A stretch of 43,050 bases of DNA from assembly GCA_012521895.1 (NCBI GenBank), contig JAAYLK010000079.1, positions 1 to 43,050 on the forward strand, in the 5' to 3' direction. This DNA is from Clostridiales bacterium (lineage in GTDB: Bacteria > Bacillota > Clostridia > Christensenellales > Aristaeellaceae). A model generated the notes under the pieces. That model was not told the DNA's origin. It was given only the letters and a program-made list of their open reading frames with translations, and did no database searches. Below are positions 11,405 through 20,483 of this stretch, piece by piece (positions within the stretch are counted from its first letter, which is position 1; the number at the start of each line of letters is the position of its first letter). The translations under genes were made by a program, and so were the position numbers.

Positions 11405-12250
11405 CTATTTTTGAGTCATCACCTCATCCACAAGATGGATTACCACACCCGTCACATGCTGCCAGGTGATTGAACTCGCGTAAGAATAGGTTGAGGCATA
11501 GGAAGACCACAAATCAGAAAGCGCTTTGCTCATCACACATTCCTGAAGGATGGCCTTAGCATCTATGAGTTGCCTTGCTGTCCCCCTCTTCCCGGCAGTA
11601 GCATTGAGGGCTTGTCCTAAATCCGATAATGTTACAACATCATGGTAAAGCTCATTCAAAATGTAAATGTCATAATAATCCCGCATCCTTGTGTTCAAAA
11701 CACCCCGGCTGAGAATGGTCTCAATCTTTTCCGCCAATACAGTTTCCAAGTTATACGAAAGCACAGGAATTTCACGCTTTTCAAACATCAAACGATATGG
11801 AAACTCAATCGCACCGGGCGTGATGACGTCATCTGTAGAAAGGTCCAACTTCATTGCTGTGATGGTTCCATCAAAAAGCGCATCCATGCTGACGCGATAC
11901 CCCGGATACTTGACATCATCCATGATGCTTGAAACGCTTTTTACAAAAAATTCCACCCCATCCTCTACGGGGATTGAAGCGATTTTTGTAATCAGGCTTG
12001 CGACTGTATCTTCGGACAAGTGAATGCCTTGAACTGTCACATCCACATCCATGGTAGACCGCGCTTCTACACCAACCATGGCTGTAACCAAAGTGCCCCC
12101 TTTGAGGATGAGTTTTTCTTTGTATTCCGAGCGTGAAACCCGCTCCAGGAAACGTTCTGTCATAAATGTGCGCATCAGCAGCTGCGCGTTCGCGGACTTT
12201 GATGCTGCCAGATTCCGAATTTTATCCTTGAGTTGTCGCGATGTCTTCAT
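11405..12250 (-). CDS. abiEii: AbiEii-type nucleotidyltransferase toxin
   Basis: Toxin of a type IV toxin-antitoxin / abortive infection pair. It belongs to the DNA polymerase beta-like nucleotidyltransferase family (AbiEii/AbiGii, DUF1814). Motif 1 is LKGGT near residue 50 followed by RSTMDVDV with the two metal-binding aspartates near 68 and 70. The later Lys/Glu motif is ETVLAEKIETILSRG followed by RMRDYYDIYIL. In studied members the toxin transfers nucleotides to tRNA or other targets and arrests growth during phage infection. Its start overlaps the antitoxin stop (ATG at 12250, or GTG at 12253, both served by GGAGG), so the pair is co-translated. About 281 aa. Base composition is visibly more AT-rich than its neighbours, suggesting transfer. 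Confidence 0.88.
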   Translation of the reverse strand: MKTSRQLKDKIRNLAASKSANAQLLMRTFMTERFLERVSRSEYKEKLILKGGTLVTAMVGVEARSTMDVDVTVQGIHLSEDTVASLITKIASIPVEDGVEFFVKSVSSIMDDVKYPGYRVSMDALFDGTITAMKLDLSTDDVITPGAIEFPYRLMFEKREIPVLSYNLETVLAEKIETILSRGVLNTRMRDYYDIYILNELYHDVVTLSDLGQALNATAGKRGTARQLIDAKAILQECVMSKALSDLWSSYASTYSYASSITWQHVTGVVIHLVDEVMTQK

Positions 12251-12843
12251 CACATCAGCACCTCCATGTATTCCCGCACGATGCCTTCAATGCTGAACAA
12301 GGAAGCATACTTCATCAACTGATTGAGGTTCTTGTCATTTCGTTTAACATACGCTTTGAGTGCGCCCTGGAAGACTTGAAACTCCAGCCTTCCCCGGCTG
12401 CGCACAAGGTCGCAAATGGTTCGGTCGATGTCATATACGGGCACTGCGTGACCAAACTGCGTTAGAGCGGTCGTCTTGCCAATTTCGTGCAGCGATTTTT
12501 GAACTGTATATACCTTGATTCCCTCCGCTGCCAACCTGTAGGGATTGTATCCGGTTTTGACAGTGATGGAAGGGTGAGTGGGTTCCCTGTCAGTCAAATC
12601 ATGGAGGAGCAAAGCGCTTTCATGGGAGAAAATTGCTTGCCTGCTACGAAGATGAAGCACAAACATGCTGTCTACCCAAGCATCAGGGGAGGCATAAACA
12701 CCGTGCGCAACACGCTCCAATTGATTGAGCTTGATGAATTGGTAAAGCGCAGCTTTATCAACCCCATCTTGAAGTGCTTGCGCTGTGTGTAGAATACCTT
12801 TGTTCCGCTCCATCAATCGGAGAAGATGATCCATATTCAGCAA
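12250..12843 (-). CDS. abiEi: AbiEi-type antitoxin and autorepressor
   Basis: Antitoxin partner of AbiEii. Residues about 1-55 form a winged-helix DNA-binding region typical of AbiEi (MERNKGILHTAQALQDGVDKAALYQ, then LERVAHGVYASPDAW). The C-terminal AbiEi domain (SHESALLLHDL, then DIDRTICDLVRSRG) neutralises the toxin. The start is TTG at 12843 with AAAGGAGG 7 bases upstream; the next ATG (12834) is spaced too far. Length is 197 aa. AbiEi proteins repress their own promoter by binding inverted repeats, and such a repeat lies immediately upstream. Confidence 0.88.
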   Translation of the reverse strand: MLNMDHLLRLMERNKGILHTAQALQDGVDKAALYQFIKLNQLERVAHGVYASPDAWVDSMFVLHLRSRQAIFSHESALLLHDLTDREPTHPSITVKTGYNPYRLAAEGIKVYTVQKSLHEIGKTTALTQFGHAVPVYDIDRTICDLVRSRGRLEFQVFQGALKAYVKRNDKNLNQLMKYASLFSIEGIVREYMEVLM

Positions 12844-13005: not shown

Positions 13006-13734
13006 TCAGCCCTTCCCCCTGCGGATCAGCTCCTGCACGGCGAAGGCCGCGACGTCTGAGGCATATTTGCCCGGGCCAAAGCCGGCGTCATAGCCCAATT
13101 CCTTGGCCAGCTCGTGGCTGATGCGGGCGCCGCCGCAAATCAAAACGACCTTGTCGCGCAAGCCCTCAGCCTCCAGCAGCTCCACCAGCTCCACCAGGTT
13201 GTGCAGGTGGACGTCCTTTTGGGTCACCGTCTGGCTGACCAGCAGCACCTCGGCCTTTTTCTCAATGGCTGTGCGGATAAAGGCCTCGTTGGGCACCTGG
13301 CTGCCCAGGTTGTAGGCCCTGATGCCCTTGTAGCGCTCCAGGCCGTAGTGGCCGGCATAGCCCTTCATGTTCATGATGGCGTCAATGCCCACGGTGTGGG
13401 CGTCCGTGCCTGTTGACGCGCCGATGATGACGATTTCGCGGCCCAGCCGCGTTTCAATCAGCTGCTCGATGTCCTCCTGGGACAGGGCGGTGGTCTCCAC
13501 CTCGCTGACGGTGATGGTGTCAGGGTCAATGCCCTGGGGCACCACGCCATAACACACATACAGGCTAAAGCCTTCGCCCATCGCTTCGCAGTGCACCACC
13601 TGGGGGTCCGCCACGCCCATCTGGGCAAGCAGCGCCTTGGCGCAGGCCATGCCCCTGGCGCCGGCGGGCAGGGGCAGGGTGAAGCTGAACTGCATCTTGC
13701 CGTCGTTCATGGTGTCGCCATAGGGTCTAATCAT
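13006..13734 (-). CDS. kamE: D-lysine / beta-lysine 5,6-aminomutase, B12-binding beta subunit
   Basis: Small subunit of the adenosylcobalamin- and PLP-dependent aminomutase that turns beta-lysine into 3,5-diaminohexanoate. It starts with RPYGDTMNDGK, a hallmark of KamE. The Rossmann-like B12-binding domain has the base-on motif DAHTVG (His 113). Lys 124, in MNMKGYAGHYGLERY, matches the lysine that anchors PLP in the open form, at the family's spacing of 11 from the histidine. The ATG at 13734 overlaps the kamD stop by 8 bases; the long upstream reading frame is a shadow of kamD. Length is 242 aa, slightly shorter than usual at the N-terminus. It is the last gene of the operon. Confidence 0.96.
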   Translation of the reverse strand: MIRPYGDTMNDGKMQFSFTLPLPAGARGMACAKALLAQMGVADPQVVHCEAMGEGFSLYVCYGVVPQGIDPDTITVSEVETTALSQEDIEQLIETRLGREIVIIGASTGTDAHTVGIDAIMNMKGYAGHYGLERYKGIRAYNLGSQVPNEAFIRTAIEKKAEVLLVSQTVTQKDVHLHNLVELVELLEAEGLRDKVVLICGGARISHELAKELGYDAGFGPGKYASDVAAFAVQELIRRGKG

Positions 13735-15280
13735 GGTGGGCCTCTTCCAGCCGCAGCAGCGCGGCGTTGATATAGTCCGGGTGTTTTTCCACCACGCCCT
13801 CCCGACCCTTGCCCAGGGCGAAGGGGCGTTTGACATCGGCGAAGATGCCTTGTTCCAGGGCGACGAACAGGCCCATCTGTGCGATCTGTTCCAGCAAATT
13901 ATGCGCGTTTTGCAGCACGTCTTTGGCGCGGGCCTGCACCTTGCCACCCGGGGTGAACTGGATTTCCTCGTGGATGCTGCGCATGGTGGCACGCACCATG
14001 GCGGCGTTGGTGATGGCCAGGTGACGGTCAGACAGGAAGGGCGTGTGGATGGCTTCCGTCATCATGCCCAGCAGGTGAATGCTCTGCCCGGTCATCATGG
14101 CGGCAGCGTTGAACAGGGTGTCCTGCGCCTGGGTCTGGAAGATGTTGCCGGTGGAGTGCTTGGTGGGCGGCATGTACTTCAGCGGCGCTTTGGGAAAGAT
14201 TTCCCGCGCCATCTGCGCCTGGGCGATCTCCAGCAAAAAGCCGTCCTCCACCATCGGGTCAATTTCAAACGCGTGGCCCAGGCCCATCTGCTCTTCGGGC
14301 AGGCCCGCCAAGAAGGCAAAGCGCTCGTTGATGAACTGGCTGGCCAGCACCGTGTGGGCTTGCTCCACGGCGTCTGCGGTGGTCAGGTAATTGTCTTCCC
14401 CGGTGTTGATGATGATGCCGGCCTTGGCGTTGATGCTGCGGGAGAAGTGCTGGTCGATGAAGGTGCGCTCCATGTTGATGTCGCGGAAGATGATGCCGTA
14501 CATGCTGTCATTGAGCATCATATCAAGACCCTCCAGCGCGCCCATCGCGGCGATTTCGGGCATGCACAGGCCCGAGCAATAGTTGACCAGCTTGATGTAG
14601 CGGCCCAGTTCCTTGCCCACCTCATTCAAGGCCTTGCGCATGATGCGGAAGTTTTCCTGAGTGGCCATGGTGCCGCCAAAGCCTTCGGTGGTGGCGCCAA
14701 AGGGCACATAGTCCAGCAGGCTTTGCCCGGTGGAGCGGATGACCGCGATGATGTCCGCCCCCGCGCGCGCGGCGGCCTGGGCCTGCACGGCGTCCTCATA
14801 GATGTTGCCGGTGGCCACGATGACATAGATCTGGGTGTCGTTCTCGCCCAGTTTTTTCAGTAATTCTTCGCGATGCGCGCGGTGGGCGCGGATTTTCTCA
14901 AAATTCGCGTCCAGGATGGGCTTGAGCGCCGCCAGGGTCTGCTCATGGTTCAACAGCGGATGCCCCAGCAGGCTGACTTCTTCCCTGGCGAAGGCCGCGC
15001 AAAAGCCGGGCACATCAAGCCCGGTGGCATAAAGCGCGCTGGCCAGGTAGACGGACGCGCCGCGGTTTAACACACCCGCCTTTTGCAGGCTGTCCACCAT
15101 CAAATTGGGCAGGGGCACCCCGAAGGCGTCCACGCCGTCCACCCCGCACAGCCGCAGCACGGCGCGTTCCACTGTGACCGTGGTGCGCTCCAGGCTGTGC
15201 TCATGCACTTGTTTTGCGATGGTGTCGGCCAAAGCCCGGCATTCCTGAATCAGTTGTTTGTCCAGGTTCAGTTTGTTCAT
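13727..15280 (-). CDS. kamD: D-lysine / beta-lysine 5,6-aminomutase, alpha subunit
   Basis: Large TIM-barrel subunit (517 aa) that carries the PLP and adenosyl-binding side of the enzyme and works with KamE. Recognisable stretches are VDGVDAFGVPLPN near residue 50, VPFGATTEGFGGTMATQENFR near 215, and MPPTKHSTGNIFQ near 385. ATG at 15280 shares a base with the stop of the upstream gene (TGATG), with GGAGG ten bases upstream; a TTG at 15283 is an equally reachable start. Neighbours on both sides overlap, so the subunits are made in a coupled way. Confidence 0.96.
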   Translation of the reverse strand: MNKLNLDKQLIQECRALADTIAKQVHEHSLERTTVTVERAVLRLCGVDGVDAFGVPLPNLMVDSLQKAGVLNRGASVYLASALYATGLDVPGFCAAFAREEVSLLGHPLLNHEQTLAALKPILDANFEKIRAHRAHREELLKKLGENDTQIYVIVATGNIYEDAVQAQAAARAGADIIAVIRSTGQSLLDYVPFGATTEGFGGTMATQENFRIMRKALNEVGKELGRYIKLVNYCSGLCMPEIAAMGALEGLDMMLNDSMYGIIFRDINMERTFIDQHFSRSINAKAGIIINTGEDNYLTTADAVEQAHTVLASQFINERFAFLAGLPEEQMGLGHAFEIDPMVEDGFLLEIAQAQMAREIFPKAPLKYMPPTKHSTGNIFQTQAQDTLFNAAAMMTGQSIHLLGMMTEAIHTPFLSDRHLAITNAAMVRATMRSIHEEIQFTPGGKVQARAKDVLQNAHNLLEQIAQMGLFVALEQGIFADVKRPFALGKGREGVVEKHPDYINAALLRLEEAHHD

Positions 15281-16272
15281 CAAAGGGCGTCCTCCAGTAC
15301 GTTGATGAGGGGCAGGTCGGTTTCCTTGCGCATGGCGGCCTTGAAGGCCTGGCTGTCAAAGCGCCAGCCCGCGGGCGAAAAAGGGTTGAGCACCACGGCC
15401 ACCAGGTTCAAAGCGGACAGCGCCAGCAGCGGGCGGTTCAAGGCCAGCAGCCGCAAAAGGGCTTCGCCGTCCGCGATCAGCTTGGCGGCGTCCCTCACAA
15501 TGAGGCCACAGGCATGTTCCTTGCGGGATAAGACAAAGGCCTGGGCGAAGGCGTTGCCCATGGCGCCGGGCACATAGAGAAAATCCGCGTCTTTTTGCAG
15601 GCTGGCGATCGCTTCCTTCTCATGCCCAATGAGGGTGTCAAAGGGCAGGGAGTGGAAAACCATGTCCTTGTCCAGCGTGCCGGGCCGCTGAATATCCTCC
15701 AGAAAAGCAAATGCCTCCGGGGCTTGCTTGAGGGTGAAACGGCGGATGGCGGCCCCCGCCTCACGCGCCACCTTGGCCATGTCGGGGCTTAAGTACGCGC
15801 CCACAATGTACACCATCGCCTGGCAGGCGCCGGCGTGGGTGAGCCGGCCGAAGGCGCCGTCCACAAAGACCTGCCGCGCGCCAAGCGAATGCAGCCGTGA
15901 AACCACACACTGCAACTCCGCCGCGGTGGACGGCCCGCCCACCAGGGCGTTGCCCGCTTCCTCCGCCCGCACAATCAGCACTTCGCCCAGGCCGGTGTAC
16001 ATGCCTGTGCGCTCCAGCACTGTAAATGCAAGTGGCGAAGCCTCCAGGCACGCCCGCGCGCTGGCCACCAGCATGCCCTGTTCAATGCGGATGCGCGGCT
16101 TGGGCAGGCTGGACACCAGGTCCAGCTCCTCCCCATCCAGGCCAATGGAGGTCAGCCCCAGGGGGCGCTTGTCCGTCGCTTCCATAAAGGCCTTCAGTGC
16201 CGTGGTCTTGCCCGCGTTTTTGACATTGCCCACCAGGGAGATGCTGTCATATGGGGCCAGCAGGCGGCTCAT
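15280..16272 (-). CDS. kamB: P-loop protein of the lysine aminomutase cluster (KamB-like, probable reactivase subunit)
   Basis: A 330-aa cytoplasmic protein with an N-terminal Walker A motif, [10 protein letters not shown] (residues 15-24), after a short beta strand. No other domain is recognised with certainty. Its place between kamA and kamD is where lysine fermenters carry kamB, which is annotated as part of an ATP-dependent chaperone that restores inactivated 5,6-aminomutase, by analogy with diol dehydratase reactivases. The usual partner ATPase, a MutS-like KamC, is not in this operon. The ATG overlaps the kamA stop (ATGA). The name rests on position and the P-loop, so it is less certain than its neighbours. 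Confidence 0.75.
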
Positions 16273-17540
16273 GCCTTGTGTTTTCCGTTGCGCTGCCTGC
16301 GGTGCAGGGTCTTGGGCTCAATGGCCAGTTGATGGCCGCTCAGCAGCCCCGCCACGCCCTCGCGGTGCACGCCTTCCTGGCACTGCTTGCAGTGGCACTC
16401 GTCCACATAGCCTTCGGGCTCGGAATACGTGGTGACCACGCCCTCATAGTTGCGCAGCACCACCTTGGAAGGCGACTGGCTGACGATGTACTGCGGCATC
16501 ACCGGGATCTTGCCGCCGCCGCCGGGGGCGTCCACCACGAAGGTGGGCACGCAAAAGCCCGACACATGGCCGCGCAGGCCCTCGATGATTTCAATGCCCT
16601 TGCTCACGGGCGTTCTGAAGTGCTCTATGCCCATGCTGAGGTCGCACTGGTAGAGGTAGTAGGGCCGCACGCGCATGGCCGCCAGGCCGGTCACCAGGGT
16701 GCGCATGATGTTGACGCAGTCGTTCACCCCGCGCAGCAGCACGCTCTGGTTGCCAAGCGGGATGCCGGCATCGGCCAGGCGCTCAACAGCGGCCTTGCTT
16801 TCGGCTGTGAACTCATTGGGGTGGTTGAAGTGGGTGTTCAGCCACAGGGGGTGGTGTTTCTTTAAAATGCTGACCAACTCCGGCGTAATGCGGGAGGGCA
16901 GCACCACCGGTACGCGGCTGCCGATGCGGATGATTTCGACATGCGGGATGGCGCGCAGCTCGCCCAGAATCCATTCCAGGCGCTGGTCCGACAGCAGCAG
17001 CGGGTCCCCGCCCGACAGCAGCACATCGCGGATTTGCGGGGTGTTGCGGATGTAGTCCAGGCCCGCCTGCACGCGCTCGGTGGGGGAGGCGCTGTCCTTT
17101 TGCCCGGCAAAGCGCCGCCTGGTGCAGTGACGGCAATACATGCCGCACATGTCCGTCACCAGAAAGAGCACGCGGTCCGGGTAGCGGTGGGTCAGCCCGG
17201 GCACGGGCGAATCCTTGTCCTCATCCAGGGGGTCCGCCATGTCGTGGCGGCCGATGGTCAGTTCCGCAACGCCCGGCACCGCCTGCTTCCTAATGGGGTC
17301 ATTGGGGTCCTCCGGGTCAATGAGGCTTAAGTAGTACGGCGTGATGGCGATGCGGAAGCGCCCCAGCACGTCCTCCATCTCCTGTTCTTCCTGGGGGGTG
17401 AGCGGGATAAACTGCTTCAGGCCCTTGGCGTCGGTGACGCGGTGCTTGACCTGCCAGCGCCAGTCGTTCCACTGTTCCTCCGTGATATTCGGAAACAGCC
17501 GCGCCTTGCGCGCGATGTAGTCATCATTGGTTTTCAGCAT
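16269..17540 (-). CDS. kamA: L-lysine 2,3-aminomutase
   Basis: A radical SAM, PLP-dependent enzyme that interconverts L-lysine and L-beta-lysine, the first step of lysine fermentation. The cluster-binding CxxxCxxC is CGMYCRHC (Cys 132, 136, 139), the SAM-binding GGDP follows, and the PLP lysine lies in [13 protein letters not shown] (Lys 344). C-terminal cysteines in DECHCKQC fit the zinc site of the clostridial enzyme. Length is 423 aa, typical. ATG at 17540 shares a base with the kdd stop (TGATG) after GGGGGAG. EpmB-type relatives are shorter and lack this context, so the fermentative role is favoured. Confidence 0.97.
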
Positions 17541-18580
17541 CACACATCTCCCCCATATCGTTTCATGAACAATTCCTGCAAATCCTTCCTGCTGCGCAGC
17601 AGGTCCAGGGTAAAGTCCCCATGCCCGGGGGTGTAGCCGTTGCCGATGATCATGGTGGCGTTTGAAGCCACGCCCTCCGCCCCCAGGGCGGCCTTGGAAA
17701 AGGAGGTGGCCATGGAGAAGAAGTAGACCGTGCCCCCATCGCGCACCGGCAGGATGGCCGCCATCTCGGTGTTTTGCACGTTGACCACGTTGATGCTTAC
17801 ATCAACTTTCCGGCCATTGTTGGCTTCCACCACCTGCTGGTAGACCGACAGCGGGTCCCGCGCGTCGGCCATGAGGATGGCGTCACACACCTTGAGGGCC
17901 CTTAATTCCTCCGTCTGCGAGGGGCTGTGGCAGATGCCGATCACCCGTCCGGCATCACCCACGGACATTCTCGCCTGGGTGGCGCACAGCACGCCGGATT
18001 TGCCCTCGGCGCCCAGAATGACCACGCTGTCACCGGGCTTTAAGAGCCTCGCGGTCTGGGCCGGGGCGCCGGCCACATCCAGGGCCGACAGCGCCAGACG
18101 GTGGTCCAGGTCATCAGGCAGCTTGGCGTAGATGCCCGTTTCAAAGAGGATGGCCTCGCCCTCAATGTCCACCTGATCGGACTCCAGGTGGATGTCCTTG
18201 ATGTGAAGAATGACAAGCGGCGTCAGCGACAGGCTGACCAGGGTGGCAATGGGCGTGCCGGGCTTCACCTGCCCGGGAAAGTCCGCGCCCACTTCCTTGA
18301 CCCTTCCCAGCAGCATGCCGCCGGAGCCCGTGACCGGGTTTTGCAGCTTGCCGCGTTCCTTCACGATGCCCAAAATCATGGCCTTCATGGCTTCCTTGTC
18401 GCCCTGGCAGGCTTCCTTAATCTGGGTGAAGGAGGCGGAGTCCACGTTGAGGGTGTCCACCGAGATGAGCATTTCATTGGCTTGCAGGGGCATGGCGGTG
18501 TCAAGCTTCTGCGCCGGTTGGGGCAGCGCGCCCTTGGGCGCAAGCACCCGGTGGGAGCCGTAAGGGCAGGGCTTCATCAT
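17540..18580 (-). CDS. kdd: L-erythro-3,5-diaminohexanoate dehydrogenase
   Basis: An NAD(P)-dependent oxidative deaminase that converts 3,5-diaminohexanoate to 5-amino-3-oxohexanoate with release of ammonia. The N-terminus ([23 protein letters not shown]) and the 346-aa length match the Kdd family. A dinucleotide-binding Rossmann fold starts at [11 protein letters not shown] near residue 190. It overlaps kce by 4 bases (ATGA) and is followed by kamA. Confidence 0.95.
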
Positions 18581-19404
18581 GAACGTGCCTCCATTCCCAG
18601 CATCTTCCGCGCTTCATGGGGGTTGGCGATTTCTCTCCCGGCTTGCCTGGCCATGTCGGCCACCTTGCGCACCAGGTCGGCATTGCTTGAAGCGAGTACA
18701 CCCTTTTCAAGGTAGAGGTTGTCCTCCAAGCCCACGCGCACATGGCCGCCGTCCTTGATGGCCCACCGCGCCAAGGGGAACTCAAAGCGGCCGACGCCGG
18801 CCACGGAATAGGTGGCGTCATCCGGAATGGACGCGCGCAGGAAGGCGACGTCCCGCTCCTCCCCCGTCATGCCGCCGTTGACGCCCAGCACAAAGGAAAA
18901 GTGCAGGGGCGGCGTGATAAAGCCCTTCTTGTGCAGGCGCAGCGCCAGGTCCACATGGCCTTTTTCAAAGCATTCCAGCTCCTTGAAGATGCCCCGCTCC
19001 TGAATGCCTTTGGCAAAGGCGATGATGTCGTTTTCGGTGTTGATGAAGATTTCATCCCCGCCAAAGTTGAGGGTGCCGCAGTCCAGGGTGGCCATCTCGG
19101 GGTTCAAGGTGAGGGGCGCCATGCGCTCCTCCCGGCTCATCCCGGTGGCGCCGCCGGTGGACACCTGCAAAATGGCGTCCGGGCATTCTTTTTTAATGGC
19201 TTCGAGGATTTCTTGATACCGGGCGGCCTCCTGGGTGGGGCGGCCGTCATCGTGCCGGGCGTGGATGTGCAGGATGGCAGCGCCGGCGTCCACCGCTTCC
19301 TTCGCGGCTTGCGCCATTTCGGCCACCGTATAGGGCACCGCCGGGTTTTGCGCCTTGGTGACCTCAGCGCCTGTCAGGGCGCAGGTGATGATCAGCTTAT
19401 CCAT
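18577..19404 (-). CDS. kce: 3-keto-5-aminohexanoate cleavage enzyme
   Basis: A zinc-dependent TIM-barrel enzyme (BKACE family) that condenses the keto acid with acetyl-CoA to give 3-aminobutyryl-CoA and acetoacetate. Zinc ligands are visible as HIHARH (His 46 and 48). The catalytic glutamate region is [13 protein letters not shown] near residue 235. Length is 275 aa, standard. It overlaps kal by 8 bases. The acetoacetate product would need a CoA-transferase, which is not in this operon. Confidence 0.96.
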
Positions 19405-19801
19405 GGTGCTGCCCCCGCTGGTTTGCTATGGGCACCACGCAGGTGCCAGACGCGCTGGCCACCAGGATGGGCTCTGCCAATACGTCAGCCGCCGAGGGGC
19501 TGATATCGCCCCTTGGGATAATCGCCTTGTGGCAGGTGAAGGCCATCACGCGCGAGGACTTGCCCGCCTTGACCAGCTCCGCCTTGACCTCCAGGAAGTC
19601 CCCGGCGTAGACAGGGGCCAGGAAATCCACCTTGTCATAGGCGCGGAAGAGGCCCTCATCCCCGTCATGGCGGATGAGCAGCTCGGTGGCGGCATCCCCA
19701 AACAAGGCCAGGACGCGCGCGCCGTCCACCAGGCCCCCGCCGTAGTGGGCGTCCTGCTGGCTCATCCTCAAGCGCAGTGTGACGGTCAGGTTGTTGCTCA
19801 T
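19397..19801 (-). CDS. kal: 3-aminobutyryl-CoA ammonia-lyase
   Basis: A hotdog-fold enzyme (134 aa) that removes ammonia from 3-aminobutyryl-CoA to give crotonyl-CoA. The start region [22 protein letters not shown], then [20 protein letters not shown], is characteristic of Kal. It overlaps the upstream maoC-like gene by 4 bases (ATGA) and kce by 8 bases. Confidence 0.95.
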
Positions 19802-20235
19802 GCGTCCTCCTTCTTTTGGTCCCGGGGCGGCATCACGGTGGCCTCGCCCACAATCACGGTCTCGCCCTTGTCATTCACCGCCAGGCAGTCAAACACCACC
19901 CTGCCGCGCTCAACATTGATGTCCTTCACGGTGATGGACGCGGTGATGGTTTCATTCAAATACACGGGCTTGGTGAATTTCAGCGTCTGCCCGGTGTAGA
20001 TGGTGCCCAGGCCCGGCAGTTCCATGCCCAGCAGCGCGCTGAACAGCCCCGCCACCAGCATGCCGTGCGCGATGCGGGTCTTGAACATGGTGGTGCTGGC
20101 ATAGGCCTCATCCAGGTGCGCGGGGTTTTTGTCCCCGGTCAGTTGCGCGAAGGCCAAGACATCCTCCGCCGTAAACGCGCGCCGCGCTTCCGCCCTGTCG
20201 CCGATTGTTAGTTGGCTGATGGTTTTTCCGCTCAT
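19798..20235 (-). CDS. MaoC-like (R)-specific enoyl-CoA hydratase
   Basis: First gene of the lysine operon, 145 aa, single hotdog domain. The hydratase 2 motif is [18 protein letters not shown], with the catalytic Asp 35 and His 40. PhaJ/MaoC enzymes of this type hydrate trans-2-enoyl-CoA to (R)-3-hydroxyacyl-CoA. Here the natural substrate would be the crotonyl-CoA made by Kal, giving (R)-3-hydroxybutyryl-CoA; this is inference. It is not part of the textbook lysine pathway. A strong AGGAGGGC precedes ATG at 20235. Translation follows the riboswitch and terminator at 20250-20440. Confidence 0.85.
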
Positions 20236-20249
20236 GCTGCCCTCCTGTT

Positions 20250-20286
20250 AAAAAATAAAAAGCCGCCGTGTTCAAGACACGACAGC
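20250..20286 (-). terminator. Riboswitch-controlled intrinsic terminator
   Basis: On the minus strand GCTGTCGTGT (20277-20286) pairs with ACACGGCGGC (20262-20271) over 10 bp including two G-U pairs. A TTTTTATTTTTT tract (20250-20261) follows, ending four bases before the maoC ribosome site. The 5' arm contains the P1 3' strand of the lysine aptamer. Confidence 0.85.
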
Positions 20287-20440
20287 GCTCCATCAAGTGG
20301 CAGTCCGGTGGGTGTACCCCAAGGGCCCTGGCAACGGCGGCGGGGAAGCCCTCCGTTCCATCGGCGATGCAGCCCTTCACCCGTCCCCTTGGGTCCCCAC
20401 CCTTCGCATGGACGGCCTACCACGGCACCGCTCCTCTGCA
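20281..20440 (-). promoter_or_regulatory. Lysine riboswitch (L-box) before the lysine fermentation operon
   Basis: The minus-strand leader carries the conserved blocks of a lysine aptamer in order. They are AGAGGAGCG at the 5' side of P1/P2, GGTAGGCC paired back to GGGTGAA (loop E region), TCGCCGA before P3, TTGCCAGGGC after P3, and TGGAGCGCTGTC closing P1. P2 is CCGTCC/GGACGG. Its tip hairpin GGG-TGGGGA-CCC shows a loop whose GGGGA complements TCCCC in the P3 loop, matching the known L2-L3 kissing contact. P1 pairs GCAG (20436-20439) with CTGT (20282-20285). The 160-nt size fits the family. Because that CTGT is also part of the terminator 5' arm, lysine binding should prevent termination (an ON switch). 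Confidence 0.88.
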
Positions 20441-20454
20441 TTTCTTCTTTGTGG

Positions 20455-20483
20455 AGTATACAATACTGCATAAATACAGTCAA
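20455..20483 (-). promoter_or_regulatory. Promoter of the lysine fermentation operon
   Basis: TTGACT (20478-20483), a 17-base spacer and TATACT (20455-20460) on the minus strand place the transcription start just before the riboswitch aptamer. Confidence 0.88.

What the first reader, a model, noticed from the sequence alone, without database searches (positions are those of the whole stretch)
20250..20483. Lysine riboswitch in front of a lysine-degrading operon, wired as an ON switch
Seen: conserved lysine-aptamer blocks in order, P2 and P3 stems, and complementary L2/L3 loops (GGGGA with TCCCC). The P1 3' strand (CTGT, 20282-20285) is part of the 5' arm of a 10-bp terminator with a T-tract. 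Known: most characterised L-box elements repress lysine synthesis or uptake (OFF). Inference: lysine stabilises P1, which breaks the terminator, so lysine induces its own fermentation. There is no room for a separate anti-terminator between P1 and the terminator. Related catabolic L-boxes may already be listed in genome surveys; I could not check.
Basis: partly seen in the sequence, partly recalled or inferred. Interest (0 to 1): 0.85.

Follow-up and report, generated by a model that had tools for sequence, protein, structure and literature searches.

The report
Lysine-induced riboswitch for lysine fermentation
A lysine-sensing RNA in front of the genes that ferment lysine is very probably wired to turn those genes on when lysine is present; this is a sound new example of an arrangement that earlier surveys had already predicted, not a new kind of switch.

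Summary
Rfam's lysine model hits window 20446-20275 (minus) at 58.1 bits (cut-off 30). A 10-bp terminator with a T-tract (20286-20262) reuses the P1 3' strand CUGU. A sigma-70-like promoter lies just upstream (20483-20455). The operon is a full lysine-fermentation set: MaoC-like, kal, kce, kdd, kamA, kamB, kamD, kamE.

The ON reading was tested comparatively. In 64 of 64 lysine riboswitches before lysine-fermentation genes, the first terminator is built from the P1 3' strand. That is true of only 5 of 37 other lysine riboswitches, where the terminator usually stands apart (Fisher p about 1e-19; 34 of 34 against 2 of 22 after clustering at 70% identity). The same genome has a second lysine riboswitch of OFF layout before a transporter.

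Novelty is low: PMC5584792 lists catabolic lysine riboswitches as positively regulated, and PMC2258182 describes lysine ON switches that bury terminator strands. I found no experimental test in the held library. Verdict: real, ON logic well supported by architecture, a new member of a known kind; lysine binding and induction remain unmeasured.

The parts
20455..20483 (-). sigma-70-like promoter TTGACT-17-TATACT (10 of 12); transcript start inferred near 20450
   Evidence: 0.1 expected by chance
20275..20446 (-). lysine riboswitch aptamer, RF00168
   Evidence: 58.1 bits, cut-off 30, E 8.7e-13, full model
20436..20439 (-). P1 5' strand GCAG
20394..20398 (-). L2 loop GGGGA, kissing partner of L3
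   Evidence: covarying loops in L029
20342..20346 (-). L3 loop UCCCC
20282..20285 (-). P1 3' strand CUGU, shared with the terminator 5' arm (the switching strand)
20262..20286 (-). intrinsic terminator hairpin, 10 bp, loop 5, about -14 kcal/mol
20250..20261 (-). U-tract TTTTTATTTTTT
20241..20246 (-). ribosome binding site AGGAGG before ATG at 20235
19798..20235 (-). MaoC-like hydratase, first gene of the operon
   Evidence: PF01575, E 1.8e-22
19397..19801 (-). kal, 3-aminobutyryl-CoA ammonia lyase
   Evidence: NF052388 182.8 bits, cut-off 160
18577..19404 (-). kce, 3-keto-5-aminohexanoate cleavage enzyme
   Evidence: NF052387 404.9 bits, cut-off 382
17540..18580 (-). kdd, L-erythro-3,5-diaminohexanoate dehydrogenase
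   Evidence: NF052381 254.3 bits, cut-off 200
16269..17543 (-). kamA/ablA, lysine 2,3-aminomutase
   Evidence: TIGR03820 635.6 bits, cut-off 525.4
15280..16272 (-). kamB, reactivase of lysine 5,6-aminomutase
   Evidence: NF052386 265.4 bits, cut-off 210
13727..15283 (-). kamD, lysine 5,6-aminomutase alpha
   Evidence: NF052384 819.4 bits, cut-off 600
13006..13770 (-). kamE, lysine 5,6-aminomutase beta (exact start not determined)
   Evidence: NF052385 376.4 bits, cut-off 280

Best explanation
A lysine riboswitch controls transcription elongation into the lysine-fermentation operon as an ON switch. RNA polymerase starts near 20450 and makes the aptamer first. Without lysine the four-pair P1 is weak, and its 3' strand CUGU (20285-20282) joins the 10-bp terminator, so transcription stops in the U-tract. 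With lysine bound, P1 is held. The terminator then keeps only its 5-bp tip (20281-20277 with 20271-20267), separated from the U-tract by five unpaired bases, so polymerase reads on and lysine induces its own fermentation. Shown here: aptamer, terminator, the shared strand, the operon's gene content, and conservation of this layout in relatives. Inferred: lysine binding, direction and size of the response, and transcript start.
For: Rfam match with core AGAGG, GCCGA, CUGNCA and UGGAGNGCU kept, and a base-paired change at the first P3 pair (A-U to U-A) here and in L029. Terminator and promoter. Operon. 64 of 64 catabolic lysine riboswitches have the first terminator built on the P1 3' strand, against 5 of 37 others; after clustering at 70% identity, 34 of 34 against 2 of 22. 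Three-way pairing: the four P1 3' bases pair in P1 in 60-64 of 64 and in the terminator in 54-63 of 64; position 3 varies between A and G with matching partners in both helices; beyond position 4, P1 pairing drops to 31-40 of 64 while terminator pairing stays at 58-60 of 64. In the same order, 22 of the 23 other kal-bearing genomes found carry the riboswitch just before kal or its operon, while congener G114 lacks both. The own genome's other lysine riboswitch, before a lysine/arginine-type transporter, has a separate terminator 17 nt past P1 and a -15.5 kcal/mol candidate antiterminator.
Against: No binding or transcription data. The match is weaker than the transporter riboswitch of the same genome (58 against 104 bits), with 8 of 48 model pairs non-canonical and a four-pair P1. 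Static folding of this G+C-rich leader does not give the aptamer: unconstrained -83.1, terminator state -82.6, aptamer with P1 -62.1 kcal/mol, without kissing-loop, ligand or co-transcriptional terms.
Confidence: 0.88

Rival explanations
1. A conventional OFF lysine riboswitch: lysine promotes termination.
For: Most characterised lysine riboswitches are OFF, and the other copy in this genome has the OFF layout.
Against: P1 and the only terminator share CUGU and cannot coexist; no second terminator was found before the start codon; repressing degradation when lysine is plentiful makes little physiological sense; none of 64 catabolic copies has the OFF layout.
Confidence: 0.04
2. A decayed or non-responsive riboswitch: the leader misfolds and the terminator acts as a constant attenuator.
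For: Lower bit score, short P1, 8 non-canonical pairs, and a static fold that prefers a non-aptamer structure.
Against: Core residues are kept, P3 and the kissing loops change in a paired manner in the congener, and many catabolic relatives with equally short P1 keep the same layout.
Confidence: 0.06
3. The aptamer senses a pathway intermediate such as beta-lysine rather than lysine.
For: It stands before the enzymes that make and use beta-lysine.
Against: The conserved core is that of RF00168, shared with biosynthesis and transport copies; no class-wide core change was seen.
Confidence: 0.02

Closest known systems
Catabolic lysine riboswitches of Clostridium sticklandii (kal-kce), Fusobacterium nucleatum (kal), Thermoanaerobacter tengcongensis and T. 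wiegelii (pspF3-kal-kce) (PMC5584792)
   Same: Same aptamer family, same pathway, positive regulation stated by the authors. Caldanaerobacter L065 in my set has the regulator-kal layout and the P1-built terminator.
   Different: Here the first gene is a MaoC-like hydratase and the whole kal-kce-kdd-kamA-kamB-kamD-kamE set follows.
ON-logic lysine riboswitches as described by Barrick and Breaker (PMC2258182, citing Rodionov 2003)
   Same: Ligand binding buries a piece of the terminator stem in an alternative pairing, without an extra antiterminator.
   Different: No difference in logic.
Adenine and glycine ON riboswitches
   Same: Ligand-stabilised aptamer buries part of the terminator; glycine gcv is an ON switch for catabolism of its own ligand.
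   Different: Different ligand and aptamer family.
OFF lysine riboswitches (B. subtilis and E. coli lysC; the transporter copy in this genome, L001)
   Same: Same aptamer family.
   Different: Transcriptional OFF copies have a separate downstream terminator and an antiterminator.

Membership tests
RF00168 lysine riboswitch | score over the curated gathering threshold across the whole model | tested here: met
   58.1 against 30 bits, positions 1-182
RF00168 lysine riboswitch | conserved junction core (AGAGG, GCCGA, CUGNCA, UGGAGNGCU) | tested here: met
RF00168 lysine riboswitch | L2-L3 kissing loops | tested here: met
   GGGGA with UCCCC; different but complementary loops in congener L029
RF00168 lysine riboswitch | K-turn and loop E motifs in P2 | tested here: inconclusive
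   two model positions are deleted near the loop E region; not modelled in three dimensions
RF00168 lysine riboswitch | binds lysine | not testable with these tools
   needs in-line probing or calorimetry
transcriptional ON riboswitch | terminator 5' arm contains the P1 3' strand, no separate antiterminator | tested here: met
transcriptional ON riboswitch | ligand raises read-through | not testable with these tools
   needs single-round transcription
lysine fermentation operon (kam/kdd/kce/kal) | enzymes of the pathway over curated cut-offs | tested here: met
   kal, kce, kdd, kamA, kamB, kamD, kamE all over cut-off

The most novel reading that the evidence does not exclude
Polarity of lysine riboswitches follows gene function as a rule: every copy before lysine-fermentation genes across several Bacillota lineages is an ON switch made by reusing the P1 3' strand, often with an inner P1 of only four pairs, and single genomes hold opposite-polarity copies so that lysine stops its uptake while inducing its fermentation.
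Probability: 0.55. Interest if true: 0.5.

Novelty: new member of a known kind. Interest (0 to 1): 0.35.

Why it matters
It links a natural lysine-induced RNA switch to a full lysine fermentation operon, in a genome that also holds an OFF-layout copy of the same aptamer before a transporter. The pair is a clean natural test of how one aptamer is wired to opposite outputs, and ON lysine switches are useful as biosensors. The principle itself was already predicted.

Tried and rejected
Static minimum-energy folding, free and with constraints, neither supports nor excludes the switch, because the G+C-rich leader misfolds in silico. My first comparative run misread minus-strand loci as plus; it was corrected, and only one search is used. 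Simple motif counts for the core were noisy because helices vary. Rodionov 2003 and the crystal-structure paper are not held, so ligand contacts were not checked residue by residue. The five overlap-type controls were examined: L117 and L127 stand before pckA, L132 before a glutamate-synthase-like operon; L128 was not scanned but has the leader of the pckA type; L129, with a weak hairpin, stands before an NhaC-type transporter.

Full report
Observation. Rfam's lysine model matches window 20446-20275 on the minus strand over its whole length at 58.1 bits, against a gathering score of 30. P1 is four pairs, GCAG 20439-20436 with CUGU 20285-20282, one of them G-U; the two outer model pairs are mismatched. 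L2 GGGGA and L3 UCCCC are complementary. The terminator is 20286-20262, ten pairs and a five-base loop, followed by TTTTTATTTTTT. A promoter TTGACT-17-TATACT at 20483-20455 would start the transcript a few bases before the aptamer (the start itself is inferred). AGGAGG and ATG follow the terminator.

Operon. On the same strand follow a MaoC-like hydratase, kal, kce, kdd, kamA, kamB, kamD and kamE; every one from kal on scores over NCBIfam's curated cut-off. This is the lysine fermentation pathway through beta-lysine and 3,5-diaminohexanoate (established pathway knowledge). A MaoC-like gene also comes first in the same-genus relative L029 and in L062, so it belongs to the unit in this group, though its step is not known; an (R)-specific crotonyl-CoA hydratase is my guess.

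Test of the ON logic. I collected 64 lysine riboswitches standing before lysine-fermentation genes: the window, 22 from other genomes of the same order, 33 from named genome contigs, and 8 from the wider phylum including two tandem pairs. As controls I took 37 others; those whose first gene I scanned include lysA, asd, dapF, NhaC-type and ABC-transporter genes. A script sought U-tract hairpins near and downstream of the aptamer's 3' end and asked whether the 5' arm of the first one includes the P1 3' strand. Result: 64 of 64 catabolic copies overlap; among controls 5 overlap, 28 are separate and 4 have none (Fisher p 1.3e-19). After clustering at 70% identity it is 34 of 34 against 2 of 22. 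In catabolic copies the hairpin begins 3 to 16 bases before the P1 end; in most controls it begins 17 to 58 bases after it.

Three-way covariation. The four inner P1 3' bases pair in P1 in 60-64 of 64 and in the terminator in 54-63 of 64. Position 3 is A with U partners, or G with C or U partners, in both helices. Past position 4 the P1 pairing fades to 31-40 of 64 while the terminator pairing stays at 58-60 of 64. Members of one clade share ancestry, so these are not independent counts.

Distribution. In the same order, 24 of 297 genomes have kal over cut-off, the window's genome among them. Of the other 23, 22 have a lysine riboswitch within about 1 kb of kal on the same strand; G144 has none. 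Congener G114 has neither kal nor riboswitch. Across the phylum the link is looser: of 77 kal-bearing genomes only 6 had a riboswitch within about 10 kb of kal (with stricter filters).

Opposite polarity in one genome. The only other lysine riboswitch in this genome (C33; L001, 104 bits) stands before a lysine/arginine/ornithine-type ABC transporter gene. Its terminator starts 17 bases past P1, and its P1 3' region can pair with downstream sequence at -15.5 kcal/mol, the layout of an OFF switch. Inference: high lysine lowers this uptake system and raises fermentation.

Limits. Static folding disfavours the aptamer by about 20 kcal/mol in this G+C-rich leader; such a calculation omits tertiary contacts, ligand and folding during transcription. 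There is no wet evidence.

What is known. PMC5584792 states that lysine riboswitches stand before catabolic genes in four named species and regulate them positively. PMC2258182 states that certain lysine riboswitches with ON logic bury pieces of terminator stems. Text searches of the held library found no experimental demonstration of a natural catabolic one; subscription papers are not covered. The finding is thus a well-supported new member of a known, mainly predicted, kind.

Noticed in passing
L117 1501-1689, L127, L151, L153-L155 (genus g187 of family f92, Bacillota): Strong lysine riboswitches (L117 124 bits) with an ON-type hairpin that reuses the P1 3' strand stand before an open frame matching PEP carboxykinase (pckA; scanned for L117 and L127). 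These genomes have kal and kamA but no lysine riboswitch found at that operon.
   Followed up: partly
L132/L156 1501-1684, L149, L150, L152 (same genus): A second ON-type lysine riboswitch; in L156 it stands before a class-II glutamine amidotransferase-like gene, a glutamate-synthase-like gene and an FwdC-like gene, which looks like a split archaeal-type glutamate synthase.
   Followed up: partly
L145 813-1257, L146 9294-9705: Tandem lysine riboswitches, both with P1-built terminators, about 6 kb before kal; in L146 the next gene is kdd.
   Followed up: partly
L023, L027, L028, L030, L068, L095, L141, L145: A second terminator-like hairpin after the P1-built one, in some cases repeating the GCGCTAT block, perhaps a second decision point.
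   Followed up: no
L065 1387-2820, L144 989-2449: A sigma-54-dependent regulator (PrdR-like) lies between the riboswitch and kal, so the riboswitch may control the regulator first.
   Followed up: no
window 11405-12843: AbiEi/AbiEii type IV toxin-antitoxin pair directly downstream of the kam operon.
   Followed up: no
window 19798-20235: MaoC-like hydratase as the first gene of the lysine operon, also first in relatives such as L029 and L062; its step in the pathway is unexplained.
   Followed up: partly
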